A DNA stretch of 64,000 nucleotides, taken from the NCBI GenBank assembly GCA_022478985.1, contig JAKSZP010005263.1, forward strand, positions 248,001 to 312,000, given 5' to 3'. The translations under genes were made by a program, and so were the position numbers. Positions 18,207-59,107 of this stretch are shown here, in pieces (the first letter of the stretch is position 1; each line of letters opens with the position of its first letter). The notes beneath the pieces are model-generated. The model saw only the letters and a program-made list of their open reading frames with translations, was not told the DNA's origin and ran no database searches. This DNA comes from Massospora cicadina (Eukaryota > Entomophthoromycota > Entomophthoromycetes > Entomophthorales > Entomophthoraceae).

Positions 18207-20182
18207 TTAGATATTTATTATAAAATTATAGAAGTTAAAAATTCATTTGAGGTAAGCCAACCAGGGGATGGACATTACCAAAACAAAGAAACCAAACAAG
18301 TGAACTGAAAACACTAACCAAACGCCCTAAATGAGCGGTGAGACATCAAAACAAAATGAAAAATAAACTACCAGGTGTAGCAGCGGTGAACCGCTTATCC
18401 CACCATGGTAGAGGGGGAGGGGGGATCAGGCAGATTAACTATATCAGCTTCAATATTAAAGAGGTGGATCAAAGCTGAGAGCAAGGGGGTTGGGCATCCG
18501 CATGATGCTGGTCAAGGTGAAATAGATAATTGTTAAGATTGCCATTGGCAATTTGGGCCTGGAGCAAAGCCTCTAAGAGTTTGGCAACATGGTGTTTGGC
18601 TGTTATGTGTTCATCGAGAAGCTGGGCAAATTTCGTAATATTGACTCTGGTGATACATGTGATGGGGGAAAAATCTGCCAGTGCAGCAACATGCTTGACA
18701 GCGAGGTGGCAGTTTCAGTTAATCGTTTGATTTCCACTTTTGCAACCTCAGGGAAATCAGGAGGAAAATGGGTGATGTGTATCCCTTTCTTAAATTTAGT
18801 GAGAGAGAGCGCCATGGAATTACGGAGATAGTGACTATCAGGTGAAGCCACCTCAGTCTTGGCAAGCTGATGGTCGCTCAAGAAAGGGGTAGTGGTGGGT
18901 TTGGGGACATATTTCTTGGGCGGGAATGGGGCATCAAAGTCTGAAGGAAATTAAAATTTCAAATTAATCAGAAAGTCCAGAGGGGGGACAATTCCCCCTA
19001 TTTGGTTATTTCATCCAATAAGTCCCAGGGATTTTGGTTGAGTGGGATTGAGTCAGAGATATGTGGCTGTGGTTGGGTAGGCTTTGTAATGGGAAAATGT
19101 TTGGTTTGATTTTGGGTCTAAACTTGCTCCAAATTGGGTAGATTGTGAGAAATTTGGCTGGCTTGGGCTTTGGTTGCAAGGTTTTGATGATTTTTTGAGC
19201 ATTCAAGTGGACGGGGTAAGGGCAGCCAAAATTTTTACTCAAACGCTGTTTATGTGGCCTCACGGGTGGGCTTGGTGGTTTCTGCATTTTTTGACCTGTG
19301 GCGACAGTCCTTTTTAAAATGGTCCAACTCATGGCAGAGGTGACAAACTGTGCAGCTGTTGTCAATGCGAGCCCAAAATAAGTGATCTGATGCAGATGGG
19401 ATATAGGCATGCAGTGTGATGTGCTGGGCTATGGTTGGCTGGTGGAGGGCAATGGTGGCTATTGCCCAAGGTGCCACTAGTCTCTCAGCACCGCTCAGGA
19501 CAGGGAAGTGGAGGATGTGGTTTGTGCCATATTTGGACATCCTTGTCATTAATTCTTCATAGAGTTTTTGAGAAAAGTGTGAGGGAAGGTTTGCAAAGGA
19601 CACCACAAATGTGGTATCACTGAGGAGTCGTGAATGGGTGGTGTAATGTGTGTGTTTTTATATACTAAGGTCGTAGCTGATGCAGTGGCCGCGTCCTCTT
19701 CAGTGGGAAAGCCTATATCAACTTAGCTCTTGTAAGGGTGGAAGTTGATAAACCCAGCTGGTGCAAAGGTGGCCATTTCCAGCTCAATTATCACTTTGTT
19801 GGCATATGGTAAGAGACATCCATATTTGACATGGAGGCAAAAGTGAATATTGGATTGAGGTAAGGCTAGGGGGTAAAGGCAGGTTGGGTGGACTCATGCT
19901 AGGTGTAGTAATAAGTCCCTTGGAGGGACAAATTGGCCTGTTGCATTAGGTGGGCTGAATGATCCAGTCCACATGAGTTTGCCTGCTGGGCGGTAAATAC
20001 TATCAGGTGGAGCAACGCTGCCCCACACTGGGGCAGCAGGTGGTGGATCTGAAGACATAAATGGAAAACTGATGTGGTGTAGGTGGTGATGGAAAATTAA
20101 CTTTATTTTTTAATCAAAACACTTAAAAATGATGTTGATCAGAAAGAAAAAGAAAATCGCACTTTTTAGATATTTATTATAA
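18207..20182 (-). mobile_element. O1: ORF1-only retroposon (body 18224-20165) with a perfect 17-bp target duplication
   Basis: The body of 1942 bp is flanked by TTAGATATTTATTATAA at 18207-18223 and 20166-20182. Read on the minus strand it starts with a 5' segment (TCTTTCTGATCAACATCA) like the LINE 5' end, encodes one ORF1-type protein, and ends with CCCCTGGTTGGCTTACCTC and an A+T-rich end. No endonuclease or reverse transcriptase is present. Its length matches O2 (1917 bp) and O3 (1925 bp). It resembles HAL1 elements, which are L1 relatives that keep only ORF1. Confidence 0.85.
18480..19980 (-). pseudogene. O1 ORF1-type nucleic-acid-binding protein
   Basis: The protein is read in pieces. One piece (19250-19606) has 'MVSFANLPSHFSQKLYEELM', an RRM-like beta-alpha start, then 'FWARIDNSCTVCHLCHELDH' continuing FKKDC. 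This is a full CX2CX4HX4C zinc knuckle. A proline- and lysine-rich linker follows. A C-terminal helical piece near 18490-18660 includes 'ITRVNITKFAQLLDEHITA' and 'YLFHLDQHHADA'. The same C-terminal pattern occurs in O2 ('ITSNNIANFTTLLKVHLEA', 'YLDPHFEDA'). It probably binds the element RNA, as LINE ORF1 proteins do. I know no named family for the C-terminal segment. Confidence 0.75.
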
Positions 20183-22830
20183 TTTACTTCTATATTGAAG
20201 AGTTGAAGGGAATAAAATTTCCTAGTTGATTCTTTAAGCCATAGTAATAGTATACTTTAGTGGGGATGAAGCCACTTATTAAGAAGTTTAAATTGACTAG
20301 TTGGCTCCATACAACTAGTATTCCTTTTATTCTTACAACAAGTTTAAACCTGTGCACTAAATTTTCCAAATTAGTTTACAGGATCCTTACTGGCAGCCAT
20401 AAAGTTGCACTATAAGAACTTTTCTCCTGGCTAACGTCTCACTAGTAAAGTGGACTTTCTATAAGGTGTGAGTGACATCACAGCTAGTGTCATTAGGCCT
20501 TGCGTTGAACGCCAACCTAAATCCAAGTCTAGTAAAGCTCAAGGATAAGGACAGAGACCATAAAAATACCAGAGACCTCTTTAATGTCATTGATATAAAT
20601 GGTTTTGGCTCTACATGCAAAGGATAATCCTCATTGTGGAAAGCAACAGGAATCCAGGTAAGTTTATCCCATTTTTTTTAAATTACCATGTATGTGGTAA
20701 TTGAGTTTAGAATAGTTCTAAAAAGCTCAATTTTTTTGAAAGCAAAAAATACCAGCATGAATAGGGTTTTGAAAATTGCTTGGCTACAAATTTCACCCAT
20801 AAAACTTAAACACTTGCTGAAATTATTTTTGCTTTTCAAGGGAGATGTTACAAGCCTTAAATAAAGGGTATCATATGCTAAAACTGTTATCCTTTGTGTC
20901 CTTTTTTCATATTGTCTTGTATAAAATCCTCACCTGCAATGGCTTTCTTAGACAACAGTTATGCCTCACTTGGCTATTTTGACTAAATTCAAAAGCCCAC
21001 ACCAATAACTACTCTGTTAAGTCTGAAGAGCACCAATCTGTGTACGCTTAATATGGACCCTACCCAAACCTTCTATTTACAGGGTCACTTTCTTTTATTA
21101 CTCTGTACCAGTTTTGTGTGCGTTTTGACTCATAATTTCATATGAGAACTTATTATTATTACTTGGGATGTTATTTTCTGCTCATACCTCACAGTCTATC
21201 ATTTTGTCTTCTTTTCCCCTAGAGCTTTCCCTTCTGCATCTTTCTTTGAGATACTTTTATTCACAATAGGCTGCATAGTTGAGTTTTTGAACTTTAGAGT
21301 ATTTTCTGTTAGCAACTACTAATTTTTATTCAAAAGTCAGTCTGACGTAATTGATGAGAAATACTCCCACATAATATTGTGTCAGTACTAAGGTATGAAG
21401 TAGGGTAGCATCAGTGATAGTATTGGCTACTCTTCTTTAAATTGTGGGATTAGATCAAGTACAATATAGTAGTCTTACAAGATCTTATTGAATTTAATTG
21501 CAAGTAACTTGATCTACCCAACTGGAGAAGAGTTCAGTAAGATTATATATTTATCTCAGTTGAGGAGCAGAGACTAACATAAATAACAGTTAACAAGTGA
21601 TATGTGGTAATCTACAGTGTCATTAGAATGATTAAGATAATTTTGACTGGAATGTAGGCTTAATTCTCAATGAACTAAAAAAATCTAGAATTCCAGAAGT
21701 ACAGCCATTTAATGACCTATTTATTGAATATATAGAGAAGATATAAGGGAAACTAAAAGTTCAAGAACATACTAAAGGCCCAAGAATTATTCTAAAAGAA
21801 GTTGCTGGGGCAATCTCAGGTCGAGCTTGGGAATCCTGGGAGGTGGGAGGGGCTGAGAGGTCACCAGGGTATTAGTATTTGTGGTTGCATGTCATTGGTA
21901 ATACTGAAAATGGGGATAGACTTCCCAGGTAAGAGGGTAGCTTCAATGGAAAAAAGAGATTTTAATCTCCAATTAGTAATGATTGATGCAGATGCAGAGA
22001 TATGAAGTATTCATGCCTTGGAAGATAAAGTAGGCCATCACATATGGAGCCAGGTTGTGGGACACAGATGAGGCTACTATTTTGAATATATTTATGTCCC
22101 AGTTCAAGTTGAGGCCTAGTACACAAGTAGTGGATTATGTGTTGCTCAAGATATCCAATTTTAAGAATGAGTTAAAAAATACTTAGTAAAGGTTAGAAAA
22201 GTAACCAGAGCTGATCCTACTGGTAATCGCACCCTTTTGTAAAAAAGAGAAGCAAAATAGGATTATTCAACTCTTAGTTTTAGGCTTTGCCACAGTTCAG
22301 AAAGGCTAGTGATGGTTTAAGATTGATATAAAAATTTAAACATAAATTGAAGTTTAAGTTAAAATTTAAATGGTTCATTTTATGTGTATTCTAAAATTAG
22401 TTTAAGTTTCACAAATGAGCAAAAAAGTATGTGAGCATAAGGAAGAACAGAATAAAAAAGGGATACTGTAAGCTTTAAAATTTGATTTGATTGATCACAA
22501 CCCAAAGTTGGGGAGAATTTGGGATTAGTAATGCAGCTGGAAATAGCTTTTGAAACAAGAAATATTTTAATATTAGGTCTAGCTAAACCATACTTGCAGC
22601 CATTTTGGAGGGTTTGGGGCCACAGGGGGGCAGGATCTTGACTGTTGGTGAGGGAGGTCTAAATGGTGGAGCCTTTGGGCTGTTTGGGTGCAAGGTGCAA
22701 GTGGTTGGAACTCCGTGAAACTTCTCTATTGCTGAAGCATCTCTAAGCAAACATGAGAACATTTTGAGGTGTGTTTTTATCAATATTAGAATTGGTGTAA
22801 GGCATTTGGCTCAATCCAACAAGATATTCA
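20183..22830. other. Decayed A+T-rich region, mostly unassigned
   Basis: No motif is secure. A possible gag-like segment, 'FKLRPSTQVVDYVLLKISNF', lies near 22090-22180. A proline-rich minus-strand open stretch of 66 residues lies at 22583-22783. Because the gypsy A pol end follows at 22830, part of this stretch may be an upstream tandem copy of A. Confidence 0.3.
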
Positions 22831-23180
22831 TAGTCATAAAACCTTTCAGGACTAGAAAGAGATCAAACTCAAGGCCTTGCCACTTACCCAGATCTCTGAC
22901 CTATGGCATAACCTGTACAAGTAATGAGTAGCTTCTGCCCATCCCTGCTTCCCAGGCTTCTTCCCCCAACAATTCCCAATCCCACTTTGGTCTTCAAAGT
23001 ACTACCTGAAAAAAATCAGAAAACTCTGTGCAGATTTTGGAATCTTTGGATGATCAATAACACGGTCTTCAGACATCACTCTCAACAGGTGGTTAATCAA
23101 AAGTCGCCTGGATGGAAAAAAGTATTTAGTGAGTCAAAATTTAGGCAAGAAGTTAAAGAAAAAGGTTGAACTTAGGAATC
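22830..23180 (+). pseudogene. Pol 3' end of a tandem gypsy A copy
   Basis: The block from 'caaggccttgccacttaccc' (22872) through 'agaaaaaggttg' (23156) aligns with 35710-36010 of the main gypsy A copy. It directly precedes the A 5' LTR, so the layout is pol end, LTR, gag-pol, LTR: a tandem. Confidence 0.6.
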
Positions 23181-23199
23181 AAACCTGATACTAAATTCC

Positions 23200-23787
23200 A
23201 TAGTTGTTAAAGTAAATTCAGACTTTTAGAATATACTAAAAACAAACCAAGAAAAGCACAAAAATTTTAGCTGATATTATTACTATTTTGATTTGAATTG
23301 AGGCAATGATTTATGACATAATTAGGTGATTGGTAAAAAAATCTATGATCACAATATCCAAAAATTGACACCTAAACCCTAGTAATAAAATTTGGAATAG
23401 TAACATCCCCTCCCCAGCACAGTATAAAATCCAGCACTCTGTTAATGGCAGGGCGTTGAGTTTATTTTTTTCATTGCTTTACCCTTTCAAATTTATATTT
23501 AAGTTTAAGTTATTTGTATATTTAGTTATCTAAATTAGATGGTTAATGTTCCTGAAGAAGGATACGGTTTTAGAAGTAATTTTTAATTTGCTGATCACAG
23601 TATTTTGAGGAACGTTAAGACTTATCCTTACACACCTTAACTAACATAGGAACTCCACTAACCTTATATTTCTTCTTCTATTATTCCTCAAAGATAGGGC
23701 GTCGCCTGGCAGTATAGAGTTACTGTTGAGGGTGGCCAAGCACCTGCCGTCAACAGCCCAGTTTTTTTGGCTCTCTCTGTCCTAGCA
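23200..23787 (+). repeat. Gypsy A 5' LTR (left edge uncertain)
   Basis: Its 3' part (23699-23787) aligns with 51114-51207, and its 5' part with the TATA region aligns with 36240-36310. The end is CCTAGCA at 23781-23787. The left edge is blurred by the tandem pol end. Confidence 0.65.
23423..23465 (+). promoter_or_regulatory. Gypsy A LTR TATA box and predicted transcript start
   Basis: TATAAAA at 23423-23429 is followed about 31 bases on by TTGAGTTTATTTTT (from 23455). The start is complementary, with mismatches, to the bases just after the LTR. The 3' LTR copy has TTTGGGTTTTT at the same place, complementary to all of AAAAACCCAA. Confidence 0.5.
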
Positions 23788-34360: not shown

Positions 34361-34365
34361 AACTG

Positions 34366-36410: not shown

Positions 36411-36483
36411 ACTTTCTCTTTCCATTTGATTACACATTTGAGTAAATTTTGGAATTACAGAAGAACTAAACAACTACAAAAAA

Positions 36484-36488
36484 CCAAC
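36484..36488. repeat. Target-site duplication of chromovirus F, left
   Basis: CCAAC is repeated exactly at 49149-49153. Confidence 0.9.
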
Positions 36489-36758
36489 TGTGATGTCAAG
36501 ATGCTGCCTGACCGCCACATAGCCCCAACCCCCCCTAAGGTGAGGATCGTGGCTATTAGTAATGTAAATAATATAAATAAAAGTGTTGGGCTCGAGGGCA
36601 ATGACCCTCAAAAATGGCATTCTGACAAATCAGATGCTGTAAAATTGATGAAAACTTGGAGCAAAAGTGGCAAAGGTCGATGTAAATGGCGACTGGGCCA
36701 ATCAAAGGCCGCCAACTCAAAGTCCAATGAACTAAACAATGAGAATGGCAATAGCAAA

Positions 36759-37040
36759 GGGCAGCCCAGCGAAGCAGGGGCTGCCAAGCCAAATTATGCC
36801 AAAAACAGAATCATTGAGAACCATGGCATTGGGCAGCTCAGCAAATCAGGAGATTCCAAGCTGAACAATACCAAAAGTGGAAACGTCAAGAATTACAGCA
36901 TTGGGAAGCTCAGCGAATCAGGAGCTGCAAAGCCAAATCTGCCGCTTGATGAAAATATTGAGAGCCACAGTGAAGGGCAGCCCAGCGAATCAGGGACTGC
37001 CAGGCTGAATTATCTAAAAAACGGAAATTTTTGTGATTTG
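36759..37040. repeat. 72-bp hairpin minisatellite in the F LTR
   Basis: Units start at 36759, 36831, 36903 and 36975, exactly 72 bp apart. Each opens with a perfect or near-perfect hairpin, GGCAGCCC...GGGCTGCC in unit 1. The 3' LTR has the same four units at 42188, 42260, 42331 and 42403, so the array is older than this insertion. Confidence 0.9.
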
Positions 37041-37246
37041 GTCAACAAAAGCATGCTGAGCTCTAATTCATCCTCAACGAATGAAAATATATGCAGAAAA
37101 GTTTCCATAATGCCTTGGGTACCCAATGAACGGTCTAGAATAGGCCTAGATGGGAATATTGGAGGCTGAAATTCTCAAAATAGGCCTGCAAATAGCCCAC
37201 CACCCACGGACTCCATGGGATCAAATTTCCCCATATCCCCATTTAA

Positions 37247-37290
37247 TATAAAAACAACCAAGAGAAGGTGCTTAAGACAACTTCGTCTTT
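37247..37290 (+). promoter_or_regulatory. F LTR TATA box and predicted transcript start with self-primer
   Basis: TATAAAA at 37247-37253 lies about 32 bases before AACTTCGTCTT (37279-37289). These bases can pair with TAGATGAAGTT at 37631-37641, directly after the LTR, with nine Watson-Crick pairs and one G-U pair over ten positions. Confidence 0.6.
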
Positions 37291-37629
37291 TAATAAATAT
37301 AAAATAAACCTCAAAAATTGGAAATAAATTTTGGAAATTTCGAAATCATTTATTAAGATTTTTGAGGAAAACCCAGGATTTTGAGTGAAGAAAATGGACC
37401 ATTCCACAGATTTTGACAGAGCAGTCGCCTCTCTGTATGCTCTCTGGGGGATAGACTGTCCTCCTCAGTGTGAGCATCATCCTCACCATGTTCCAGGGAT
37501 ACCTTAAATCACTCATCAAGCCAATGAACAAAGGAACTAACCACAGCAGCCCTCTCATGTTTGTGGGCCCTCACCTGGGCCCTCTTATCCAACTGTTTTG
37601 TGGCAATGTGGAAGGACCTATTAGTCACA

Positions 37630-37642
37630 TTAGATGAAGTTC
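37630..37642 (+). other. F candidate self-priming site
   Basis: TTAGATGAAGTTC starts at the LTR edge and is complementary to the predicted 5' end of the F RNA. Tf1 and relatives prime this way. No TGG tRNA-type site is present. Confidence 0.6.
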
Positions 37643-37699
37643 ATTCAATCTCATCTCCCTTTTATGGGATGGGATGGGGAGACCATATGAGAGAGCCCT

Positions 37700-38559: not shown

Positions 38560-38880
38560 GGTTCCTCCTACCTGTTTATTCCATTTACTTTGAAGCAAAA
38601 GAAGAAAGGGAAATGGGCCAAGTTAGAAAAACTGTGGCTGTTAGTGGACACTGGAGCTGAATAAAACTACTTGGACCAAGAGTTAGCCAAGAAATTAGAA
38701 GTACAAATGTTAGAAAAGGGTACTGTGACTCTTGCGGACACCTCCAAGTCATCGGAATGATGGGAGATTGAGCCCAGGATCAAGCTTCAACAGGGAATCC
38801 ACCACTTCTGGGAAGACTTTTGCGCTATCCAGAACCTGCCCCACCCCATCGTTCTGGGCATGAAAAGGTGGCATAAGTAC
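38560..38880 (+). pseudogene. Chromovirus F protease
   Basis: The frame reads 'LWLLVDTGAE', with an intact DTGA at 38647-38658, followed by a stop two codons on, then 'NYLDQELAKKLEVQ' and, near the end, 'LPHPIVLGMKRWHKYSPHFD'. The last block is the usual I.LG..WL..H.P..D end of a chromovirus protease. It would mature the Gag-Pol precursor. Confidence 0.8.
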
Positions 38881-39800: not shown

Positions 39801-40400
39801 AGCGCCAATGGATAAGACAGGTGTGCGCAGTTTCTTAGGGGTGGTGGATTTCCTGAGGAGATTCACCAAGGACCTCTCAGAAACAGCTGCCCCGCTTACC
39901 CAGTTGACTGGGCAAGTCCCTTTCCAATGGGGAGAGGAAGAAGTTAGGGCGTTCCAGGCCATTAAGGAGGCCCTTCTCACAGCGCCAGTCCTAGCACACC
40001 TGGACGCCAATTGTCCATTCATTTTGGAGACAGATGCGTTAAATTTCGCCATTGGGGCGGTCCTCTTGCAGACAGGGGAGGATGGTTTGAAGCACCCGGT
40101 ATGCTACTTCAGCAGGAAGATGCTACCAGCAGAAACAAACCACCCTGTCTATGACTAGGAACTCCTGGCGATTATTGCAGCATTAGATGAGTGGCAGAAT
40201 CATCTTTTATACGCGTGCCACCTGTTCACGATCTGGACTGACCACAGGGCCTTGGAGTTCCACAAGAACCCCCATAGGATGAACCAAAGATAAGCCCACT
40301 GGCACCTAGAGCTGTCTCAATATGATTTTAAAATAGATTATAAACCTGGGGAGATCAACTTACTCCCAGACCTACTTAGCTGAGACCCAAAAATGATCTT
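39801..40400 (+). pseudogene. Chromovirus F RNase H
   Basis: It reads 'VRSFLGVVDFLRRFTKDLSE', 'FILETDALNFAIGAVLLQTG' and 'PVCYFSRKMLPAETNHPVYD'. A stop lies in the KELLAI block (40156-40158). Then 'IWTDHRALEF' and 'YKPGEINLLPDLLS' close the domain. Catalytic Asp residues (TDA, TDH) are visible. It degrades template RNA during cDNA synthesis. Confidence 0.85.
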
Positions 40401-40639
40401 CGTGAAGGAGGAGCTGGACAAGTTCAACATGGCCATGATGCTACCTCCACAGGTGTTTGCACCAATACAGGAGGAACGCGCTGACTTAACAGAGAGAATA
40501 CAGACAGCCCAATGATGCACCAAATTTAGAGACAAGGTCAGGAGAGAGAGAGAGGGAGGGGACCCCAGCGAAAGATACAAGAATCAAAGGAAGGATGGGG
40601 CCTCATCCTGCACCACAACTGCCTATGGGTCCTGATGCT

Positions 40640-41520
40640 CAAGCTTCAAACTGAGGTGGTGGAGTTATGTCATGACCAACCCCTGGTGGGACACCCTGGG
40701 GTGGGGAAAACAATTAAGCTGATACGCTGGAACTACTCCTAGCCAGTCCTAGTGGGAACTGTAAGAAGGTATACCGCGTGCTGCCTTACCTGTGCCCAAT
40801 CAAAGCCATCTCAAAATAAACCTGCAAGGAAGTTAAAACCACTGCAGATCGCCCAAATGCCATGGACCTCCCTGAGCATGGATTTTATCACTGGGCTCCC
40901 AATATTGGAGGGCTACGATGCGGTCATAGTTTGCTTTGGACTGACTAACAAAATATGATGAGTTCTTCCCATGCACCTCTAAGGTCATGGTAAAGGATAT
41001 GGCCAAAATCTTCATGAGGGAGGTCTTTGCCTGACATGGATTCCCAGATGAGATCATCTCAGACAGGGGCCCGCAGTTCATCTCCCAGTTCTGGGATCAC
41101 CTCCTAGAAAATTTTCCATTAAACCATGCCATTCCTCTGCTTACCACCCCCAATTGGATGGCCAGATGGAGAGGGTCAATCAGACCCTGGAACAGTACCT
41201 ACGGTGCTACCTCACCATGCGACATTTTCATTGGACAAGTGGCTGAGAATTGCACAGCTTGCGAACAACAATCTGGCACACTCATCAGCTGGAATGTTGC
41301 CCTTTTTTGCAAACCATGGGTATCACCCACGGATGATGGAGGGACATGCTGGGGGAACAAATCCCATGTCAGATGATTTAGTGACCGGAATGAGGGAAAA
41401 TTTTGAGACATTAAGAGCCAACCTGGAGAAGGCGGCGGAGGCCCAGAAGATGAAGGTGGATGAAAATCATTCTATGGCTCCACCCTCAAAGATGGAGATT
41501 ACGTCTTGATAAATGCCAAA
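40640..41520 (+). pseudogene. Chromovirus F integrase
   Basis: The zinc-binding part has 'VVELCHDQPLVGHPGVGKTI' and 'YTACCLTCAQSKP' (H, H, CxxC). The core has 'LSMDFITGLPILEGYDAVIV', with the first catalytic Asp. Then 'GFPDEIISDRGPQFISQFWD' contains the second Asp, and 'SAYHPQLDGQMERVNQTLEQ' the catalytic Glu. All three catalytic residues survive, but in different frames. 'LANNNLAHSSAGMLPFFANH' follows in the long open part 41126-41509. Confidence 0.9.
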
Positions 41521-41880
41521 CACTACACACCCCCAGGACAGTGTAGGAAGTTTAGACCCATCAACATAGGACCCTACAAGGTCCTTTTACAGGTGAATGA
41601 TGTGGCATACAAATTAGAATTCCCAGAAGGATTACATGCACATCCGGTTTTGCGCGTTTTGCAGCTCATAAAATTATGAAGGACCCATACCAGCAAAGCT
41701 GGAGCTGGTCCAGTCAGACAACCCAGGGGAGGCGGAGTATGAGATGGAGGAGATCCTGGACACCAAGATCGCTCACAAAAAGCGATGGTAATTGGTAAAT
41801 TAGGTTGGCTACTTGATAGAAGAATCCTCCTGGAAAACAGCCGCTAATTGCGCCAACTATCTCCAGAAGGTGGAGGGTAC
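41521..41880 (+). pseudogene. Chromovirus F pol C-terminus with chromodomain
   Basis: 'KFRPINIGPYKVLLQVNDVA' and 'LEFPEGLHAHPVLRVLQLI' form the typical linker (RPFKI...N..YKL.LP....HPVFHVS.L). Then 'EYEMEEILDTKIAHKKRW' and 'VGYLIEESSWKTAANCANYL' match a chromodomain (E..VE.IL......YLVKW.GY....TWE...NL). Two stops lie inside it. Chromodomains guide chromovirus integrases to modified chromatin. Of the usual aromatic cage residues, Y and W are seen. Confidence 0.85.
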
Positions 41881-41904
41881 TGGGGGCACATGGGGCTCTC
41901 CTCT

Positions 41905-41915
41905 GAGGGGGGTGA
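41905..41915 (+). other. F polypurine tract
   Basis: GAGGGGGGTGA directly precedes the TGTGA start of the 3' LTR. The mini-element T has nearly the same tract (GTGGGGGGTGA) before its LTRs. Confidence 0.75.
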
Positions 41916-42931
41916 TGTGACAGTCAAGGCGCTGCCTGACCACCACATAGCCCCGACTCCCCCTAAGGCAGGGGATCACAGCTAATAGTAACATAAATAA
42001 TATAAATAAAAGCATAGGGCTCGAGGGCAACAACCCTCAAAAATGGCATTCTGACAAATCAGATGCTGGAAAATTGATGAAAACTTGGAGCAAATGTGGC
42101 AAAGGTTGACGTTAATGGCGACTGGGCCAATCAAAGGCCACCAACCCGAAGTCCAATGAGCTAAACGATGAGAATGGCAACAGAAAAGGGAAGTCCAGCG
42201 AATCAGGGGCTGCCAAGCCAAATTATGCCAAAAACAGAAGCATTGAGAACCATGGCATTGGGCGGTTCAGAAATCAGGAGCTGCAAAGCTGAATAATACC
42301 AAAAGCAGAAACGTCAAGAATCATGGCATTGGGCAGCTCAGCAAATCAGGAGCTGCCAAGCCAAATCTGCCGCTTTACAAAAATATTGAGAGCCATGGTG
42401 AAGGGCAGCCCAGAGAATCAGGGGCTGCTAGGATGAATTATCCCAAAAAATGGAAATTTTTGAGATAAGGTCAACATGAGAATGCTGAGCTCTAATTCAT
42501 CCCTGATGAACAAAAATATATGCAGAAAAGTTTCCATAATGCCACGGGTACCCAACAATCAGTCTAGAACAGGCCTAGATGGGAATATTGGAGGCTGAGA
42601 TTTTCAAAATAGGCCTGCAAATAGCCCGCTGCTTGAAGACTCATTGGGATCTAATTTATCCATATCCCCCATTCAACAATATAAAAACAACCAAGAGAAG
42701 GTGTTTAAGACAACCTCGTCTTTTAAAAATATAAAATAAACCTCAAAAATTGGAAATAATTTTTGGAACTTTCGAAATCTTTCCTAAGATTTTTGAGGAA
42801 AACCTGGAATCTTGAGTGAAGAAAATGGACTATTCCAAACTAATCTCTTTCTGCTAAGCATCACTTTTCGAAAATCAATTCAGCCTGAAAATTAGCTCCA
42901 CTAAAGAGATTTACGAAAACTATTAGCAAAT

Positions 42932-45223
42932 ATGGCGGGAAACCCCGCAAAAGAACCCGCAGGCTATGCCAAACGAGCCAGCACCACCCCCAAACGAAGC
43001 AACCCTCGGTTACCCACCTCAGGGTCAACCAGAATCACCCGCTCTCAAGCAGCAGCCATGAAAGCAGGCACCATCCCCCAACCTGGAGCTACTCCAACTA
43101 GCGCCAGTTCACCTGATCGCACTTCTGCAACCTGCACGCCTAACAGCTCTGTGTGCGCTGCCTCCCACCAACCCGCTGGGCCCCCTCCAACCAAGGAGGC
43201 CATCACCCACGCTGTTTTAATGGCGTCTGCTCAGTTGAATGCAACTCAGCCCATCCAGGCATTCACCTCCCCCATTGTGTCAGCTAATTCAGCCCCATCT
43301 ATTATTGCTGACGCCGTGTTTCTGGCTCCCTCCATGAGGGGCGATACCCAGCTACCTGTCCCCCAAATCCTCAGATGTAAGGTTGGATTAGCCGCACATT
43401 CTGGTTCACTAAGCACCATTTTGGGACAATCTACTCTTCCCAATGAGGATTCAAATGGTTCGGATTTTAGAACTTCACACCAGTTCTAATCTCACCCATC
43501 CCATTTAAACCCCGTAATTGGCACTTCTCAAGTCGGCACTTTATCTCAATATGCTGAAAATGACCAATTCACCAATCAGCCAGTGAGTTTTGCCCACAAA
43601 ATCACAGCAAATACTCGGGCTGAATTTACCCAAATAGATTGGGATGGTGATGAAACATCTCCCTCCTCCCAATTGGCTGGAGTTAATTCCAATCTGGATG
43701 GGCATCCCCAATTTAGCGAGGCCCAACAAACCGCCCCTCAATTTAATATGACGCCAGCAACTGCTGTAACATTCCAGCAACAAGGGAACTCCGTAAACTT
43801 GTCCAAACCACCAGCTCACACTCAACCCGCAATTGCAGCCCAAAGCAAACACAAGCGTACCAAAGGAGCCACTGGGGCGTGGCAAAACCTCTGGCACCAA
43901 CGCTACCCAAAGCTGATCCCCATGAAGTGGCGTTTATTGCTGATGTTAAGAAGAAATGGGCCGAAACTAGAGCGCAAAAAGCTCTACTCCGCTCAACCCT
44001 CTCCCACGCAATTTGCCTTTATTATGGGCATAACCCTGTTGAATTCTATACAGAGGATTACTTCTCATACTTTGCAGCGATTGCGGAGACATTCTCAATT
44101 AACATCACCATCCATGAATCAGTGGAGGGCCACTACATCGATGTGGGCTTCACTGAAGCTGCCCTTGCTGACCATGCTGCCACCCTCCAAGTCATTATTC
44201 CACGCGGATCTCTTCGCATCTCCCGCACACGCTCTCACCTGGAGAAAATTTCATGGGTTACTTTTTCCAACCTACCAATGACTGTTGATCCTGAGTCTCT
44301 TAAACTGGCACTCCATCGTGATTTAATGGAGTTTGGGTCTGTTCTTTCAGTGGACTTTAGCGTCCCCTCTTACTATGCTCCCACTCAAAGAGCTCACACT
44401 GCTAGGGCGTCGTTCATCCCCTCCCCCACTGTATCCCGCAACATTGAGATTATTCCTCGTGTGGCGGTAGTTGGGACATGCCCTGAGATCTTTTTGTTGA
44501 CCCTGATCAGGCGCGCCCTCGGTGTTCATGGTGTAACGCCCTTGGACACTTGTATAGTGGCTGCACAGCTCGAAAACAAGCCCTCTTAGCCACCACCCAG
44601 GGGCCTAAACCAGGCCAAAAACGATCCCACGTGGCTGCAGCACAATTCCACAACCCACACAATGGGTTCCCGTTCAAGACCTGTCCCCTGAGGCCTTACG
44701 CCTAGCAGTTGGAACAGCTAACCCCACTATTGGTATGGGATACCTTCGCGCTCATGCCCCCCTTCCAATGGGCACCCCCTCTAATCTCCCAGAGTCAACT
44801 CCCTCTCTCACCAAGCGCAAGGCATCTCCCACAGGGTGCCCCTCGTCAGCCACCCCAACTCAGGGCTCCGCGGCACCCCCACCAACATCCACCAGCGATT
44901 TATCACATCAACCCTCAGCTCCCAATGGAGCTATGCCCACCAGAATGGACTGGCAACCCGCGGCCTGCGGTAGAAGTGCCACCTCAAAGAGTCCTACCCC
45001 AACCCCACAGTCCATTTCGCGTGGATCCTTTGCAGTGTTGGAGGAAGTGAATATGGACTCAGACTCATCAAATGGGGACACCGCGGAGGTCACCATTGAG
45101 CACCCTCAGGTCCTTCCCCTGCAACGGAGCGGGGGCAGCATCCTAGGCTGGCTTAGGGGTCCTCCGCCCCCCACCTTCTCCTTCCCCTCAGAACCCTCGA
45201 CGCTCCTCACAGATTGCAGCTAA
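42932..45223 (+). pseudogene. LINE L ORF1 protein
   Basis: The likely start is the ATG at 42932, 94 bases into the element. A low-complexity N-terminal part, rich in A, T, S and P, runs to about 43870 with one in-frame stop (43487-43489). A frame change then opens 43879-44589, which has 'ISWVTFSNLPMTVDPESLKL' (RRM-like start). A further shift gives 'RCSWCNALGHLYSGC', a CX2CX4HX4C knuckle with Cys and His codons at 44523, 44532, 44547 and 44562. A Pro/Ser-rich tail ends near 45223. It should coat the LINE RNA. Three lesions break this copy. Confidence 0.8.
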
Positions 45224-45310
45224 TAGTCAAGCTAAAGGACTCAAAACTAGCCGCCTCACAGCAGCAGGTTTAAGCGCTGGCAACCCCCCAGGACATGGAG
45301 GGGAACAGTT

Positions 45311-46180
45311 ATGAGTCCCCATGGCAGCACCCTGGCCCTGCAATCCATCAACGCAAATGGGTTGCAGATTTTAAGCGGAGAGCCCGCCTCCTCCGAAACT
45401 TCAGGTCAGCACAAATTGACATAGCTGCTGTCCAGGAGCCCCATATCCTCCCCCACGAACAATCTGCATGGAATGAACAGTTTGGAGGCAACTCCTTCTG
45501 GACAAACCATGCCGCCCTTATTGTTTTGAATCCCCGGGTTAAAACCCATTCTTTTTCACAATATCTAGGTGGCCGCCTCATACTGGCCAAACTCACCACT
45601 CCTGACTTCTCCTTCTTCGCTGCAAGCATCTACCTGCCTAATGCAGGTCAGGAGCAAAATCGGCTCTTGGAAGAGCTCCTCCAACTCAATCTCCCACGGA
45701 ATACAGTCCTCTTAGGAGATTTCAACACAACCATAAGTCGCGTCCATGACTCTTACCCCCCTGCAGCAAAGGAACGCCCTGGATCAAGTCGCCTCCAGGA
45801 TTTCCTTCGCCTGAGTGGCTTTATAGATGCGCTTCCACCCTCCGCGTCTGACTAGGTTGCATGATAGGATCCAGTATGATGGAAGAGCTTTCCAGTCAGC
45901 GTCACGCATAGATATGGCACTGATTGGCCCCCTGCTAATTGGCCGCGTCTCCTCTCCCATCTCTCGCGACAACCATCTGAGTGATCACAGGTCACTCACC
46001 GTTGTCCTCACCACCACACTTAGACCGTCGCGTAGGTTCTGGCCTAGGGTTGCCCCAGCTCTTCTCAACAACCCCTTCACTAAGGAGAAGCTGTCTATGA
46101 CCATCCGGGAGACTCTCACCTCCCCCCACCCCACCTGCTTGACCACAAGGCTAGATGGGCGGTGACCAAGGAGGGCATCA
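45311..46180 (+). pseudogene. LINE L ORF2, AP-like endonuclease domain
   Basis: ORF2 probably starts at the ATG at 45311, because that frame reads TLALQSINANGLQ, the first endonuclease block with its catalytic Asn. A frameshift near 45366 moves the rest to the frame of 45295-45855. It contains 'IDIAAVQEPH' (catalytic Glu), 'LLGDFNTTIS' (Asp and Asn) and, after another shift, 'RIDMALIG' and 'NHLSDHRSL' (Asp-His pair). All catalytic positions of the exonuclease III-like fold are present. It nicks target DNA to start target-primed reverse transcription. Confidence 0.9.
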
Positions 46181-46186
46181 CCCGCG

Positions 46187-48200
46187 TTGCTTACAACTGT
46201 GCCGAAAGCCCAGATGACTGCAGCTCGCGCCAGAGTCAAAAGGGCGGAAGCCAGAATCAGACATCTAGAGCGAAACTGCCAGCATTCGCCCTCTCCCAGA
46301 TGGTTGGAAGACTGGGAAGCGGCGCAGGAAGCACTCAACTTGGAGCTCACACTGCAGGAAGAACGGGCAGCAAACTTTACAACATCTCGTTACTATGCTC
46401 AATGGGAACGCCCCACCCGCTTCTTCTTTCAGAAACAGAAAGCCCGGTCAACAGCGCAGGATATTACTGCACTGAAGATTGGCACTACAACCACTTTAGA
46501 TAAGGAGGAAATCACGCAAGAACTACACCGCTTCTACTCCAGCCTCTTCCATGCCACCCAGGTGGACCCATCGGACATCCAAGACTTCCTATGGCGGGCT
46601 CCAGAGCCGCCCATTGACCCACGGGCTGATGAGGCTCTACTGGCGCCTATTTCCATCCAGGAGGTGATGGAAACTCTTCTGAAATCCCCACGGCTTAAAG
46701 CCCCAGGCCCAGACGGAATACCCTTTGAGGTGTACCTTCTGGAACCTGAAGTGATAGCCAGAACCCTCCGCGACCTCTTCGCTGCACTCTTGGTGAATGG
46801 CGAGGTCCTCCCCGACTCCAGAGGCTCAATCACGACCCTCATTCACAAGAAGTCATACCGTGGGAACCTGGCGAACTGGCGCCCCATAGCGTTGATCAAC
46901 ACAGACCACAAGCTCTTCACGAAGCTTCTGGCCAACCGCATCACCAAATGGGTGTCACCTCGCCTCTCCCCATCCCAGCACGGTTTTATTCCGGGGAGGT
47001 CGTTATGGGACAACTATAATGACCTTCACGTGACTTTGACTGCTAACTTTTGTAAGGTGAATGGCTTTGTGGCTCTCCTGGATATGGAGAAAGCATATGA
47101 TCGGGTAGCCTGGAAGTATATTGATGCTTCCCTGGCCTGCTTCCATCTCCCACCCGAAGCTAGGCGCTGGATATCAGCGCTCTATGACCAGCTCCACACC
47201 AGAGTCCTGGCGCCAATGGGTTTTAAAGTGGCAGTACCAGTTGGACAAGGTCTCCGGCAAGGGGACCCCCTGAGCCCTATCCTTTTTAACATCACCCTTG
47301 ACCCCCTCTTGGCCTCCTTACAGGACAAGCTAACAGGGATTCTGGTCCCAGGTAAAGCCCCCACACGCACCATGGCATTTGCAGATGACACTGCCATTGC
47401 ATTTTGGCTGCCCTGGGGATGTTGCCCTCGCTGCTGTGACCATTGAGAGGTACACCAAGGCGTCCAACGCAATAGTCAACACCTCCAAGACAACAGTTGT
47501 ACAGGTCGGCTCCCCCACCTTCCCACCACCATTTGGTATTGAACCTGAGCGCGGTACCTTCCGTCACCTGGGCGTTCTCACCAACCAACAAGGAGTTGCG
47601 CTAAAATACAATGAGGACTTGCTCCTTGAAGCAGTTAACTCCAGGATTGCCAGCTGGAACCGGCGGCACATCACCCCCCAGGGTCGAGCTCTGATGGCCA
47701 ATGTGTTCCTCCTCTCCAAAGTCTGGTTCCTAGCGCACGTCTGCCCATTCACAGATGACTTTTATACGCGGCTCAATGTACTCCTCCGCTGTTGGATCTG
47801 GGGCTCAAACCATCCACCAATGGCCCTCTCAACCATTGCCCGACCCTGCAATGAAGGGGGCCTAGGGCTTCTGGACACGCGATCCCACGCCACCACAATC
47901 TTCCTGAAGTTCCTATGGACAATTGTCTGCTGGGACGCGACCCCCATGCCCCAATGGGCGCCCGCCCTCCGCCAGTCAGTGTCAGCAGCTCTGGGTCTTC
48001 CTAGAGCATCTCTGACCTCATTAGGGGAGTGGCTCACAAACCACCCAGGCCATCGCCTAAAACCATCCTCATCCCCCTACTGGAACCAGGCTCTCCTTGC
48101 CCTGAAACGAGTAGGCGCGCGGATCCACCATGCCTTCCCATACAGAAGGGAAGGCCCTGGCCTCAGCCCCCGTCGCCATGCAATTGTGCACAATGGATAA
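46187..48200 (+). pseudogene. LINE L ORF2, reverse transcriptase domain
   Basis: The 419-residue open part 46187-47446 holds the LINE RT blocks in order: 'LKAPGPDGIPFEVYLL', 'RPIALINTDHKLFTKLLANR', 'QHGFIPGRSLWDN', 'ALLDMEKAYDRVAW', 'GLRQGDPLSPILFN' and 'MAFADDTAIAF'. The catalytic FADD is at 47378-47389. A frameshift near 47405 moves the thumb region to 47379-48200, with 'ASNAIVNTSKTTVVQVG' and 'LGVLTNQQG'. It copies element RNA at the nicked target. One lesion separates RT blocks, so the copy is recent. Confidence 0.95.
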
Positions 48201-48856
48201 GTTGTCACAACTCGCCTCAACCCCAAGATCGTCCTCCCATCCGCCCAAGACTCCTTGAGCTCCTCCCTCCCTCCGTGAGATTTGACCTTAAGGAATTGTG
48301 GAAGGACGTCTATCACCCCATCCTGTCAGCAAAGGTGTCCAACACCTTGTGGAGGGTGCTCCACTGTTCATACAGGACAGGGGGCCGGACTGGCCCTACC
48401 TTCCAGCACCAAAGCTGCCCCCGCTGTGTGGAGCCTATTGACTCCCACCTCCATCGTTTTTTCACCTGTCCAGGTGTCGCCGCATTTTGGCCAAAGGCCC
48501 GCGCGCTCCTCCATGCTCAGCCCTGGTCTGGACACCCTGTGCAAGACCTCATGTTTGAGCAGACATTGCCTGGTTGCCACCGACCCCTCCGTGTCCTCGC
48601 CTATGCCACAGCCATCTGGACCATCCATAACTCCTTCCTTCGTGCTGCCTTTGACCAGCAGGTGTGGACCCTTCCACACATGATCACCCACTTTCAGGTA
48701 CACTTTGAGATGGCCCTGAAGGTCTGTACTATGTCGCCAACCCTCCCCCGCTCAGTTGTCACTGCAGCACGGCTCTGGCGCGCAAACCCCCCTCCCTTTC
48801 TCGATGCCTCCTCCCTCCCCTTCCCTCGCCTCAGGATCTTAGGAGCACAGGCGTAA
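48200..48856 (+). pseudogene. LINE L ORF2 C-terminal zinc-finger region
   Basis: The frame of 48029-48856 reads 'LWRVLHCSYRTGGRTGP' and then 'CPRCVEPIDSHLHRFFTCP'. This is the CxxC...H....C zinc-binding domain found at the end of many LINE ORF2 proteins. It helps target-primed synthesis in L1. The frame ends at a stop at 48854-48856, about 50 bases before the A-rich end. Confidence 0.85.
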
Positions 48857-48908
48857 TTCAATAAACATCGATGAATCCCCCTTGGGTTGGGACCATCTAG
48901 TACTAAAA
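48857..48908 (+). other. LINE L 3' UTR and tail
   Basis: It includes CAATAAACATC (poly(A)-signal-like) and ATCCCCCTTGGGTTGGGACC, then a short A run. The latter resembles the O-element tail (ATCCCCTGGTTGGCTTACC). Confidence 0.6.
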
Positions 48909-49148
48909 AAAATGGACCATTCCACAGATTTTGACAGAGCAGTCGCCTCTCTGTATGCTCTCTCTGGGGACAGACTGTCCTCCTCAGTGTGAGCATCATC
49001 TTCACCATGATTCAGGGATACCTAAATCACTCATCAAGCCAACGAACAAAGGACCAAACAACAGCAGCCCTCTCATGTTTGTGGGCCCTCATCTGGGCCC
49101 TCTTGCCCAACTGTTTTGTGGTAATGTGGAAGGACCCTGTTCGTCACA

Positions 49149-49153: not shown

Positions 49154-50890
49154 AAACAGCAAACCACCAATGTCCTCGGCCTGACTTCCCACTGCTCAAA
49201 AATGGGGCAGCAGCGAAACCCCTCTAGCATCTTCCACCCAGTGGGGAAACAATTTTGAACCAGATCAACTAGTCCCCCAATTCTTCAGGTCGATACATTC
49301 CCCAAGGATCTTGCCCTCCACCTCACACATTTTCAAATGGTGCCTCATAGCCCCATTGTGCTCCCCCAAAGCAAGATGAAATATAGCCTCTGGGCCAAAT
49401 ATGTCAACTTGTTCCCCTGCAATGACAAACAAATAATTAAATTAGTTCAGGCGCTTATGCAGCCTGCAGGCTTTATCAACTTTCCACTCCTACAAGGGGT
49501 ACTTTGACCTCAGTTATACTTGTGAAGCCAATGCAGCAATCGCAGCCAACATTCCCCTAGTGCTCCAGGAAACCCCCATCCCAACTACTAGCAGCTGGTT
49601 GCCTAATGATACCACTCTTGTGGTTCAATTTAGAGGTCTTCCCACCCGCCTCCCCACTGAAACTTTATATAATGATATAATAGCTGGGTTGTCAGTGTAT
49701 GGCGCTGACCCCAAGTTACAATTTGTGGTTCCCAACAGAGCCAACTGACTAGCGGGCCCTTGCACCTTTGCAACCATATGCCTATTATCAAGCAAGATTG
49801 CCATTTTGAATCCCCTCGCACCATTGTCCCCTCTGCCCCTGACCTCCCTTTCTGGGACAGAGTAGATAAGGGGCGCAAAATCTACCCCCATTTTTTTCAA
49901 CCTGGACCACTCAAAGTGGTGCAGCCACACCATAGCCTGAGATGGAGCCCATGTGCTAGACTCCCCCATGATGCTCCCATAGCTGACTTAAATACTTTTT
50001 GAATGGGGATCAATCCTCCCTTTCCCCCACGCAAAATGGTAGATGCAAATGCCACAGATTCAACCAATAAGGAACTGAAATGCCAAACTACCACTCCCTT
50101 TAACTAATCAGGAGCCAGCGTGGACCCCAATAAATTAAAAAAACCCACCCAGACACCCAATCCAGCCCATCCATATGCCGACCAACCTATCATCAACAAA
50201 AATCCCTGACATTATTTGGGGAAAGTTGATGATTTGGGAAATCCCATCTCTGACTCAGTCGAGGCCCCAAGTCTCAAAATGTACCTAAACGCAGAATTGT
50301 GACTCAATTCCCAAATCGCCACTATGCTCTATGCTCAGATGCAGATGAATTCCAAAGTGACCACCAACTCACTAAAGAGGCTGTTGCATCCCCTGATTGT
50401 CACATTTCTGAAGGGCCATAGCGAAATCAGTCACAGTCTTGGCCAAAGGGGTACCCGCCCCTTTCCTTCCCCCATGCAACAATTTATAAAAAGGAATTTC
50501 TCCAATTCCAACAAGTTTCCCTCAAGGCAGTACAAAAAGTTGCTATGGTCACAAAATTTGGCCCCAAGACCCGCATTACTAGCAACAACATCGCCAACTT
50601 TACCACGCTACTCAAAGTTCATCTTGAGGCTGAAAAAGCCCTTTCTGAATATATCACAATCCTGCTCATAGCTAAATTTGAGCTCCCCGAGCCACTTTGC
50701 TACCTTGACCCCCATTTTGAGGATGCACCAATGCCCATGCTCTCAGCGCTCTGCCATAAACTGTCCAACACAGAGGAGGGAGGTGAGCCTCCCGAACCTG
50801 ACTCACCCCCACCATGGACGCATAGCGGTTTACTGCATCTGACCTGGTTGGTTAATTTTAGCTTTTATTTTTATTTTTTTTATTCATTTT
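49154..50890 (+). pseudogene. O2 ORF1-type protein
   Basis: It is read in pieces: 'SLWAKYVNLFPCNDKQIIKL', 'FINFPLLQGYFDLSYTCEAN', and 'TLVVQFRGLPTRLPTETLYN' (RRM-like start, within 49560-49748), followed by a region where O1 has its zinc knuckle. Here 'FWDRVDKGRKIYPHFFQPGP' has lost the cysteines. The C-terminal piece (50545-50892) has 'TRITSNNIANFTTLLKVHLE', 'ALSEYITILLIAKFELPEPL' and YLDPHFEDAPMP. There is no RT or endonuclease. Best guess is an RNA-binding protein of a non-autonomous LINE relative. Confidence 0.75.
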
Positions 50891-51001
50891 AAGTGATACA
50901 TTCATCTCTATTTTGTTTAAATTCTAGCATGGTTTTTGCTCTTTAGAGCTCAGTAATGTCCATCCTCTGGTCAGCTTGCCTCAGTTAAAAAAAATTGTTC
51001 A

Positions 51002-57160: not shown

Positions 57161-59107
57161 AATTTGAGGAGGTAGGAGAACTTTCTTTCCAAAATGTTAA
57201 AGTCTGAGTGATTTTTGTAAAGGCTAAAGTAATTAACAACTTTGAAATCCCACCACCTAACTCAACACTGACGGCCTCAGATTCTCTGCTAGCTGCTCCA
57301 GTGTGGTGTAATGGCGAAACTACTTTTAAAATATTCCATCTGGCAGGAAATGCGTTCATACTGGGTCTCCAGTCCTTTAAAATCCTTAGGATGATTCCTT
57401 TCTCCCAAGTATCTCACCCTCCACCTCACCTGTTCCCAGGTGGAGCCTTGAAGCCCCCAATGCTCCCCTGAAACAACATACATTTCAGCCTTTGTGTCAA
57501 ATATTGGAGGTTTTTCCCATTTGCAGACAAATTAATCACTAAATTAGCCCAGTAGTGATAAAACCTGAAAGCTTCATTAAATTCCAACCCTACAAAGGGT
57601 ACTTTGATCCTGGCTTCACCTACAAAGCCAATGATGGTACTGTGGCAACTGTGCCCTGGTATTCCATGGCAGCCCTTTTCCCACAATTTGAACCCAGATA
57701 CCAGCAATACCACTATGACGGTTCAATTTGCTGGTTTCCCACTCACCTTACCCTTAATGTGCGCCCAAGGGAGCTGATAGGTGCTTTTGCCGCCTATGGC
57801 TCTGACCCAATCCTTCAGAAAGTGGTCTCTAAGGAGCCCACACGTCTTTTAAAAGCATTTAGCAGTCACCAAATTACGCTCTAGTTCTAATAGAGTTTCA
57901 CTGGTCTTTTCCCCTTACAATGTTTTTCTTGCTGCCCTTGACCATCAGTTCTGGGCCTATCTAAAGGGTGGGAGGACAATCTGTCCATCCTGTTCTAAGT
58001 TGGATCACTTAAACGCAAATGCCCCTCCACTTAAGTTTCTGCTGGATTTGAAAACACCTCCGCTAATGCCCAACCTGCTGCTGATCCCAAGGGGTTTCTG
58101 TCTGTATATAATCCTGCCCTAAAGCCTGCTGCTTCAGTGGTTCCTGAGCCGGCTAATAAGACCTTTCCTCATCCCAGAACCTCGGCCAGTACAGCCAATC
58201 AGGAATGAGTGGCTTAGATTCAGGTTCATTCCAAGGCTTCATCCCATTTTCCAATCAAACCACAATGTTATGCTTATACCCACTTTTAGTCCAACAAGTA
58301 CCCTTGATGCTTATTAGTTAAGGTTGATGAATTAGTAAGTATATTTAGCCATCTAATCTATACCTTGGTGTTTTCTTAATTTAGATTACACTCTAAGTCC
58401 CTCCCTTATATTTTTAAGCCCCCAGATGGATGCCACTATGTTCTGTAGTTACCATCATATCGCTGTTGAAATGCTGCCACTCTCAACTATCATCTCCTCT
58501 ACAAAGCTGTCACCAAGTCAGTGGTGATCATTAAAGGGGTCTCCCTCCTCCCAAATATCCCTTTGACCATCTTCCAACTTGCAAGTGTACATTCTTAAGT
58601 TCTATAAAACAACTAATGATGCCATAAAAAAGTTTGCTGTGTTAATGCAGAATTCCAAAACTGAGATCACTGGCACAAATTAGTACTTTTACCAAGCTAA
58701 TAGTTCCTGAATTTAGTTTAAAGAAGCCCTTGCAAATTATATCATCATCTTTTATTAAAGCTGACAACTTTTATGAGCAACCGCTAATTGGGTATATTAC
58801 ACCGCATACTGCCAAAGCCCCTACGCCCTAAGTCTCTGCCTTAGTCCATGATATGCCCTGGGATGAGGAAGACGCCACCAAGGATGATCCCACTGAACCC
58901 CTCTCCCCTTCTTTATTGGTCAGAATAAGCGGTTATCTTCTGTTCCACCTGAAAGGTTTTGTTTTTTGATCTTTTGCATGTGTTTTGTTCCGCTCAATTT
59001 TTGGCGTTTTAGTTTGTTTTGTTTGGGGTTCTTATTTTTTATCTCTTAGAGCATTTTCTTAATTATTATACCCTGGTCAGCTATCTTCAAATAAATAATT
59101 TGATGAG
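57161..59107 (+). mobile_element. O3: ORF1-only retroposon (body 57172-59096)
   Basis: The flanks are AATTTGAGGAG (57161-57171) and AATTTGATGAG (59097-59107). The 1925-bp body ends CCCTGGTCAGCTATCTTC followed by AAATAAATA. Its 5' and coding parts align with O2. It inserted in the minus-strand gag of gypsy C. It is more A+T-rich and more broken than O2, so it is older. Confidence 0.8.
57270..58950 (+). pseudogene. O3 ORF1-type protein
   Basis: The open stretch 57555-57884 has 'FQPYKGYFDPGFTYKANDGT' and 'CWFPTHLTLNVRPRELIGAF' then AAYGSDPILQKVV. Both align with O2 (LLQGYFDLSYTCEAN, and the LP...L...LSVYGADPKLQFVV region). Past its stop, 'GRTICPSCSKLDHLNAN' keeps CX2CX4H of the zinc knuckle but lacks the last Cys. 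C-terminal traces ('KTEITGTN', 'ALANYIIIF') match the O-family end. Confidence 0.7.

What the first reader, a model, noticed from the sequence alone, without database searches (positions are those of the whole stretch)
18224..59096. A family of complete ORF1-only retroposons (O1, O2, O3) of 1.92-1.94 kb
Three copies in different positions and orientations are each flanked by their own target duplication (17, 9 and 11 bp). After nested insertions are subtracted they are 1942, 1917 and 1925 bp. They encode a protein with an RRM-like start, a zinc knuckle and a shared C-terminal helical segment, but no endonuclease or RT. The constant length argues against random 5' truncation of a longer LINE. 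The closest known concept is mammalian HAL1 (half-L1). I do not know of such a family in this kind of genome.
Basis: partly seen in the sequence, partly recalled or inferred. Interest (0 to 1): 0.88.

Follow-up and report, generated by a model that had tools for sequence, protein, structure and literature searches.

The report
Gag-only retroposons in a giant fungus
A giant genome, most likely that of a cicada-parasitic fungus, carries an old family of 1.9-kb jumping genes that once coded only for an RNA-binding-type protein and appear to borrow the copying enzyme of another jumping gene by sharing its last ~45 bases.

Summary
O1, O2 and O3 are real, about 1.91-1.94 kb each; O2 is split by a Ty3-type LTR element whose 3' LTR carries LINE F. 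In the 1.47-Gb assembly (Massospora cicadina by inference) O2 has 39 other scored matches. Of 47 held copies (chosen by score) 35 align nearly end to end, and none continues into sequence matching LINE ORF2. Of 27 full-length copies 19 have a target duplication scoring 8 or more, against 44 of 702 swapped flanks. Two subfamilies, 63% identical in DNA, keep one layout and an ORF1 under purifying selection (dN/dS 0.13 over 215 codons), although no full-length copy examined is intact. So these are not truncated LINEs. New here: the terminal ~45 nt also end another LINE ('LINE G', three ends held, one of them found by its tail) and one SINE-like element; LINE F's tail does not match beyond its shuffles. 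Best reading: an ORF1-only retroposon copied in trans by LINE G through that tail. It works like HAL1 or HeT-A, but origin by ORF2 loss is not shown. LINE G's ORF1 could not be fetched because the genome search stopped answering.

The parts
18224..20165 (-). O1, ORF1-only retroposon, 1942 bp, decayed; about 57.6% identical to consensus A
   Evidence: 17-bp exact target duplication; aligns over positions 14-1942 of consensus A; ORF1-like frames by tblastn
18247..18280 (-). 3' tail region of O1
   Evidence: 3 differences from the 30-nt tail probe; alignment A2
36413..36488 (+). O2, 5' piece
   Evidence: 36400-36484 matches the 5' end of consensus A at 81%
49154..50989 (+). O2, main piece (ORF1 remnants about 49202-50778, 3'UTR, tail about 50951-50984)
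   Evidence: 39 other scored genome matches at 80-86%; 88.9% to consensus A; tblastn
57172..59096 (+). O3, ORF1-only retroposon, 1925 bp, decayed; 61.7% to consensus B over 54-1925, matched to A only in two pieces
   Evidence: target duplication of about 11 bp with one mismatch; blastn; tail too decayed for the 7-error tail scan
36489..49148 (+). Ty3-type LTR retrotransposon nested in O2 (5-bp duplication CCAAC), itself interrupted by LINE F
   Evidence: LTR pieces 88% and 92% identical; RVT_1 at 38761-39477 only weakly matched, E 0.05, below cutoff; sequence. Ty3 assignment by reading, recalled
42838..48905 (+). LINE F, L1-like, about 6.07 kb, duplication ATGGAC[T/C]ATTCCA; ORF1 with CCHC (by eye), ORF2 with RT and zf-RVT; tail not shown to be of the O type
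   Evidence: RVT_1 E 6e-28; zf-RVT E 7e-5, below curated cutoff; solved relatives include L1 ORF2 proteins; tail score 11.5, shuffle mean 7.8, maximum 14.5
22786..23787 (+). unoccupied diverged relative of the O2 insertion site
   Evidence: 22786-23592 aligns to 35622-36417 and 23570-23787 to 50985-51207

Best explanation
The O family is an old, multi-subfamily, non-autonomous non-LTR retroposon. Its ancestral RNA carried a short 5'UTR, one ORF of roughly 545-570 codons (an ORF1/Gag-type protein with a possibly RRM-like N-terminal part, a CCHC zinc knuckle and a less conserved C-terminal part), a short 3'UTR and a conserved ~45-nt 3' tail. The tail is probably recognised by the reverse transcriptase of a separate L1-like LINE (LINE G), which nicks the target and copies the O RNA by target-primed reverse transcription, leaving target duplications. 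The O protein presumably binds its own RNA and brings it to the LINE machinery. Shown: architecture, common ends, duplications, purifying selection on ORF1 between two subfamilies, absence of ORF2 next to held copies, and the shared tail. Inferred: which enzyme copies it, the tail as recognition signal, and the protein's role.
For: Common ends: 35 of 47 held copies align over <=110 to >=1930 of a consensus. The 27 A copies taken as full length, of 39 fetched, measure 1902-1936 bp; 7 of 8 B loci measure 1923-1940 bp and the eighth is interrupted. Target duplications: 19 of 27 score 8 or more against 44 of 702 swapped flank pairs; 14 of 27 against 1 of 702 score 10 or more. Selection: A against B consensus, dN/dS 0.13 (215 codons) and 0.26 (80 codons); differences by codon position 45/25/114 in the first. 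A common ORF1/3'UTR junction motif in A, B and the single copies O1 and O3. Tail: A to B 39 of 45 identical, against 63 of 113 in the preceding 3'UTR. LINE G ends with this tail at L040, L053 and L022, local scores 31, 20.5 and 39.5; shuffled L040 and L053 tails gave a maximum of 14.5 (300 shuffles each; L022 not shuffled). The SINE-like element in L022 scores 46. ORF2 continuation in 0 of 47 copies.
Against: LINE G's full length, 5' end and ORF1 were not seen; a LINE with an O-type ORF1 may exist. Of the three LINE G ends, L040 was found by the tail scan itself; only L053 and L022 were found by ORF2 similarity. Copies were chosen by best score, so the share of full-length copies is biased upward. 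dN/dS rests on CpG-restored consensus sequences with high dS (about 1.5-1.75), and the C-terminal part (96 codons) had saturated dS. The scripted consensus still holds stops and frame breaks. Tail covariation does not beat shuffles. The 5' hairpin test on single copies was uninformative.
Confidence: 0.7

Rival explanations
1. True HAL1-like derivative: O arose by loss of ORF2 from an autonomous LINE with the same 5'UTR, ORF1 and 3'UTR, perhaps several times, and that LINE is rare or was outside the sample.
For: ORF1 belongs to the same broad type as LINE F ORF1 (29% over 79 aa, E 1e-5). The 3' tail is shared with LINE G. HAL1s are reported to have arisen several times in mammals (PMC5753468, passages).
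Against: No O-type ORF1 followed by ORF2 in 47 held copies, within the flanks held. The 3'UTR upstream of the tail is homologous among A, B, O1 and O3 but was not recognised by eye at LINE G ends. A common ORF1/3'UTR junction in these diverged sequences argues for one origin.
Confidence: 0.25
2. Scattered 5'- or 3'-truncated pieces of ordinary LINEs.
For: 12 of 47 held copies do not meet the end-to-end cut; at least three of these lie at a contig end (L037, L040, L044).
Against: Common 5' and 3' ends in two subfamilies, target duplications, no ORF2 continuation.
Confidence: 0.02
3. A host gene family spread by retroposition, or ORF1 copies recruited as secreted effectors, as proposed for EKA genes of powdery mildew (PMC4641428, passages).
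For: A fungal precedent for LINE ORF1 recruitment exists; the inferred host is a parasite.
Against: O copies keep both UTRs, the zinc knuckle region and the mobile-element tail, and are decayed in a star-like pattern. EKA effectors are described as lacking the C-terminal half with the knuckle-type domain. Secretion signals were not tested.
Confidence: 0.03

Closest known systems
HAL1 (half-L1), mammals
   Same: Non-LTR family that encodes only ORF1p (PMC5753468, passages) and needs an RT in trans
   Different: HAL1 is a derivative of L1. Here only the ~45-nt tail is shown to be shared with an RT-bearing LINE, and the ORF1 carries a CCHC knuckle, which mammalian L1 ORF1p lacks (recalled)
HeT-A, Drosophila telomeres
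   Same: Gag without its own RT, long-lived, thought to depend on the Pol of another element (PMC5537684, passages)
   Different: HeT-A goes to chromosome ends; O is dispersed with target duplications. No sequence relation was tested
SINE/LINE pairs with a shared 3' tail ('stringent' recognition), including an L1-clade lineage in maize and sorghum
   Same: A conserved ~45-nt 3' end with a stem-loop shared by LINEs and non-autonomous elements (PMC3747384, passages)
   Different: Here one partner carries a protein-coding ORF1 and is not tRNA-derived; the stem-loop is predicted, not proven
EKA family from LINE ORF1 in Blumeria
   Same: Fungal, LINE ORF1-derived, many copies (PMC4641428, passages)
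   Different: EKA effector candidates are truncated ORF1s from I-superfamily LINEs; O is a complete retroposon with its own ends

Membership tests
HAL1-type element | encodes only ORF1p, no ORF2 | tested here: met
   0 of 47 copies continue into ORF2-like sequence within the flanks held; ORF1 shown by selection between consensus sequences; no full-length copy examined is intact
HAL1-type element | derived from an autonomous LINE that shares 5'UTR, ORF1 and 3'UTR | tested here: inconclusive
   only the 3' tail is seen to be shared with LINE G; LINE F ORF1 is distant; LINE G ORF1 not obtained (requests from then on did not complete)
HeT-A-type element | Gag-only with RT supplied in trans | tested here: inconclusive
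   Gag-only met; RT in trans inferred from the shared tail
HeT-A-type element | addition to chromosome ends in head-to-tail arrays | tested here: not met
   interspersed copies, 19 of 27 with target duplications scoring 8 or more
SINE | Pol III promoter-bearing, non-coding, LINE-like 3' tail | tested here: not met
   tail met, but ORF1 under selection and length 1.9 kb; no tRNA called in the window by ARAGORN or Rfam
L1-clade LINE (for the proposed helper LINE G) | APE endonuclease and L1-type RT | tested here: inconclusive
   only the 3' part of ORF2 was read; related to LINE F (48% over 73 aa), whose RT matches L1 ORF2 structures by sequence
stringent 3'-tail partnership | common terminal sequence with stem-loop in LINE and dependants | tested here: inconclusive
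   sequence shared; stem predicted, 89% of cells pair in 15 chosen tails, but covariation measures do not exceed shuffles

The most novel reading that the evidence does not exclude
In this fungus retrotransposition is divided among three partners that share one 3' tail: a LINE that supplies RT, an abundant ORF1-only element that supplies or monopolises the RNA-packaging protein over a long time, and a SINE. The O element may even feed its ORF1 protein to the LINE, which would make it a helper and not only a parasite.
Probability: 0.15. Interest if true: 0.85.

Novelty: new variant of a known kind. Interest (0 to 1): 0.62.

Why it matters
The ORF1-only non-LTR families I know of are HAL1 in mammals and HeT-A at Drosophila telomeres. 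An independent case in an early-diverging fungus, with protein-level selection kept across subfamilies about 63% identical in DNA and a 3' tail shared with an RT-bearing LINE, would help test why an RT-less element keeps its ORF1: protection of its own RNA, competition, or help in trans. It may also account for part of the 6.3% 'L1 LINE' fraction reported for Massospora cicadina (PMC11105155, passages).

Tried and rejected
Truncated LINEs: rejected (common ends, duplications). tRNA or Rfam RNA in the tail-bearing SINE-like element: none reported, so 'SINE' rests on A/B-box-like motifs read by eye. Structure prediction of the ORF1 N-terminal part: pLDDT 41, pTM 0.28, so no fold search was run. 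5' hairpin in single decayed copies: uninformative, with poor anchors; the fold is seen in the two consensus ends but not in LINE F's end. LINE F as the helper: its tail score (11.5) is above its shuffle mean (7.8, sd 1.6) but below the maximum (14.5). Tail covariation: not above shuffles. Pfam on the ORF1 reading: only sub-threshold zinc-knuckle models. The tail scan was incomplete: it missed a LINE G tail in L022 that was found afterwards. LINE F RT search: 68 hits, at most 41% identical, none named as Massospora; it gave no organism. Paper searches on ORF1-only or non-autonomous LINEs (95 papers, 25 listed) and on Massospora with non-autonomous retrotransposons (0 papers) listed no such fungal element by title.
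Full report
What is there. The window is C4538:248001-312000 of a 1,469,884,898-base assembly in 16,968 contigs. Three elements of 1.91-1.94 kb are present. O1 (18224-20165, minus) has an exact 17-bp duplication. O3 (57172-59096, plus) has an 11-bp duplication with one mismatch. O2 (plus) is split at 36488/49154 by a Ty3-type LTR element (36489-49148, 5-bp duplication CCAAC), whose 3' LTR carries LINE F (about 42838-48905). A diverged relative of the O2 target is uninterrupted at 22786-23787.

Organism. The only protein hit of the typed ORF1 reading, of 8000 candidates scored, is a partial hypothetical protein of Massospora cicadina (P0001). Published values for strain MCPNR19 are 1.488 Gb, 19,694 scaffolds and GC 41.1% (PMC9584336, part 1 of 3 read), which fit G000 in size. 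P0001 itself is at best 83% identical to any of the 119 matches scored of 100,934 first-look candidates, so its exact locus was not found. Its longest contig is 8,079 bases and may be missing from the copy held. The identity of the genome is inferred.

A family with common ends. The O2 main piece has 40 scored matches, itself included, of 5,978 candidates; regions of the other 39 were fetched. P0001 gave 119 matches, of which 8 became loci. These 39 and 8 are the 47 copies held. By alignment to consensus A or B, 35 of 47 span <=110 to >=1930. Of the other 12, at least three lie at a contig end (L037, L040, L044). The sample is chosen by score, so 35 of 47 is no estimate for the genome. For the length and duplication tests I took 27 of the 39 as full length and dropped 12 as incomplete (L021, L037-L047). 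They measure 1902-1936 bp, with ends set from pairwise alignments. Seven of eight B loci measure 1923-1940 bp and the eighth is interrupted. Further pieces of O-type elements lie in the flanks of seven loci (L013, L017, L019, L034, L035, L043, L053), some cut by the locus end and one (L017) possibly 5'-truncated. The family is abundant, but I give no copy number.

Retroposition. Duplications in the 27 copies score a mean 9.9 against 5.7 in 702 swapped pairs; 19 of 27 against 44 of 702 reach 8, and 14 of 27 against 1 of 702 reach 10. Eight of 27 score below 8; one of these (L011) has a duplication visible by eye. Mean identity of each copy to the others is 0.816-0.853, a star pattern of old dead copies of one or few masters. 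CG/TG/CA mixtures at 66 sites suggest decay of methylated CpG.

Coding capacity. No full-length copy examined is intact. The scripted A consensus, even after CpG restoration and with one tied (14:14) homopolymer column lengthened, still falls into several open segments; I bridged these by hand for one protein reading. The B consensus, from 7 copies, is open from nt 12 to 1865 apart from two stops. The proteins agree: 73% identity over 215 codons with dN/dS 0.13, and 41% over 80 codons with dN/dS 0.26; the C-terminal part (96 codons, 43%) has saturated dS and no ratio. Codon-position differences of 45/25/114 in the first part show selection on the protein. The CCHC knuckle (C-x2-C-x4-H-x4-C) is in both consensus readings and, with decay, in single copies. 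Pfam gives only sub-threshold knuckle models.

No ORF2. Translated comparison with LINE F ORF2 and the LINE G pieces found ORF2-like sequence in 4 of 47 loci, outside the O copy in each and never as its same-strand 3' continuation (one row flagged as 3' is the antisense reading of a LINE G copy on the other strand). The 3' flank held is about 1 kb in most A loci, about 150-180 bp in most B loci and none in L037 and L040. With tblastn, RT or C-terminal pieces of LINE F also hit flanks of L001, L002, L003, L009, L010, L042, L048 and L053, outside the O copies; in L048 the LINE piece abuts the O 5' end, where a duplication marks the O insertion.

The shared tail. Between A and B 39 of 45 terminal positions agree, against 63 of 113 in the 3'UTR before them. 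The same tail ends a different LINE, called LINE G here, in L040, L053 and L022. L040 was found through its tail; L053 and L022 were found by ORF2 similarity. Local scores with the O tail are 31, 20.5 and 39.5. Shuffles (300 each) of the L040 and L053 tails reach 14.5; the L022 tail was not shuffled. LINE F scores 11.5, inside its shuffle range (mean 7.8, sd 1.6, maximum 14.5). A SINE-like element in L022 has the tail without mismatch over 30 nt; upstream I read tRNA-like A and B boxes, but ARAGORN and Rfam reported no tRNA. The tail folds as a short hairpin. In 15 chosen real tails 89% of cells pair, equal to the shuffle mean; 3 pairs have double changes (49 of 500 shuffles as high) and the covariation score is reached by 206 of 500. 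The structure is plausible only.

How it most likely works. RNA with an RNA-binding-type ORF1 product and a LINE-type 3' tail is taken by the LINE G RT and copied at a nicked target. This follows the tail hypothesis for SINE/LINE pairs (PMC3747384, passages). That A, B and the single copies O1 and O3 share the ORF1/3'UTR junction suggests that the ORF1-only form is older than their divergence. Genome relatives of O1 and O3 themselves were not searched for.

Relation to known elements. It works like HAL1 and HeT-A. Membership in a HAL1-type class is open, because derivation from a LINE with the same ORF1 could not be tested. HeT-A's telomeric habit is not met. M. cicadina is reported to have 6.3% L1 LINEs (PMC11105155, passages), but none of the papers listed in my searches (lists capped) names such a family in title or abstract start. 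Most subscription journals are not in that library, and Repbase was not searched.

Noticed in passing
window 60734-63570: Head-to-tail repeat of about 1.08 kb, two to three copies, about 81% identical.
   Followed up: no
window 17491-17640 and 55328-55476: A 150-bp dispersed repeat, 77% identical, with tRNA-like boxes by eye on the minus strand; possibly a second SINE family without the O tail.
   Followed up: no
L022:60-400 (-): A SINE-like element carrying the O/LINE G tail without mismatch over 30 nt; no tRNA called by ARAGORN or Rfam.
   Followed up: partly
L040:1-960: A LINE G 3' end and the start of an O copy lie head to tail about 45 bp apart.
   Followed up: no
window 42838-48905: LINE F is close to full length with its ORFs broken into several frames, and ends in a short A run; its 5' end (CTCTTTC...) resembles the O 5' end by eye.
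   Followed up: partly
consensus A and B, and O1, end of ORF1: A small hairpin-like motif (AGCGGT..ACCGCT type) lies where ORF1 stops in A and O1 and is kept in B, where the stop itself is not in the same frame.
   Followed up: no
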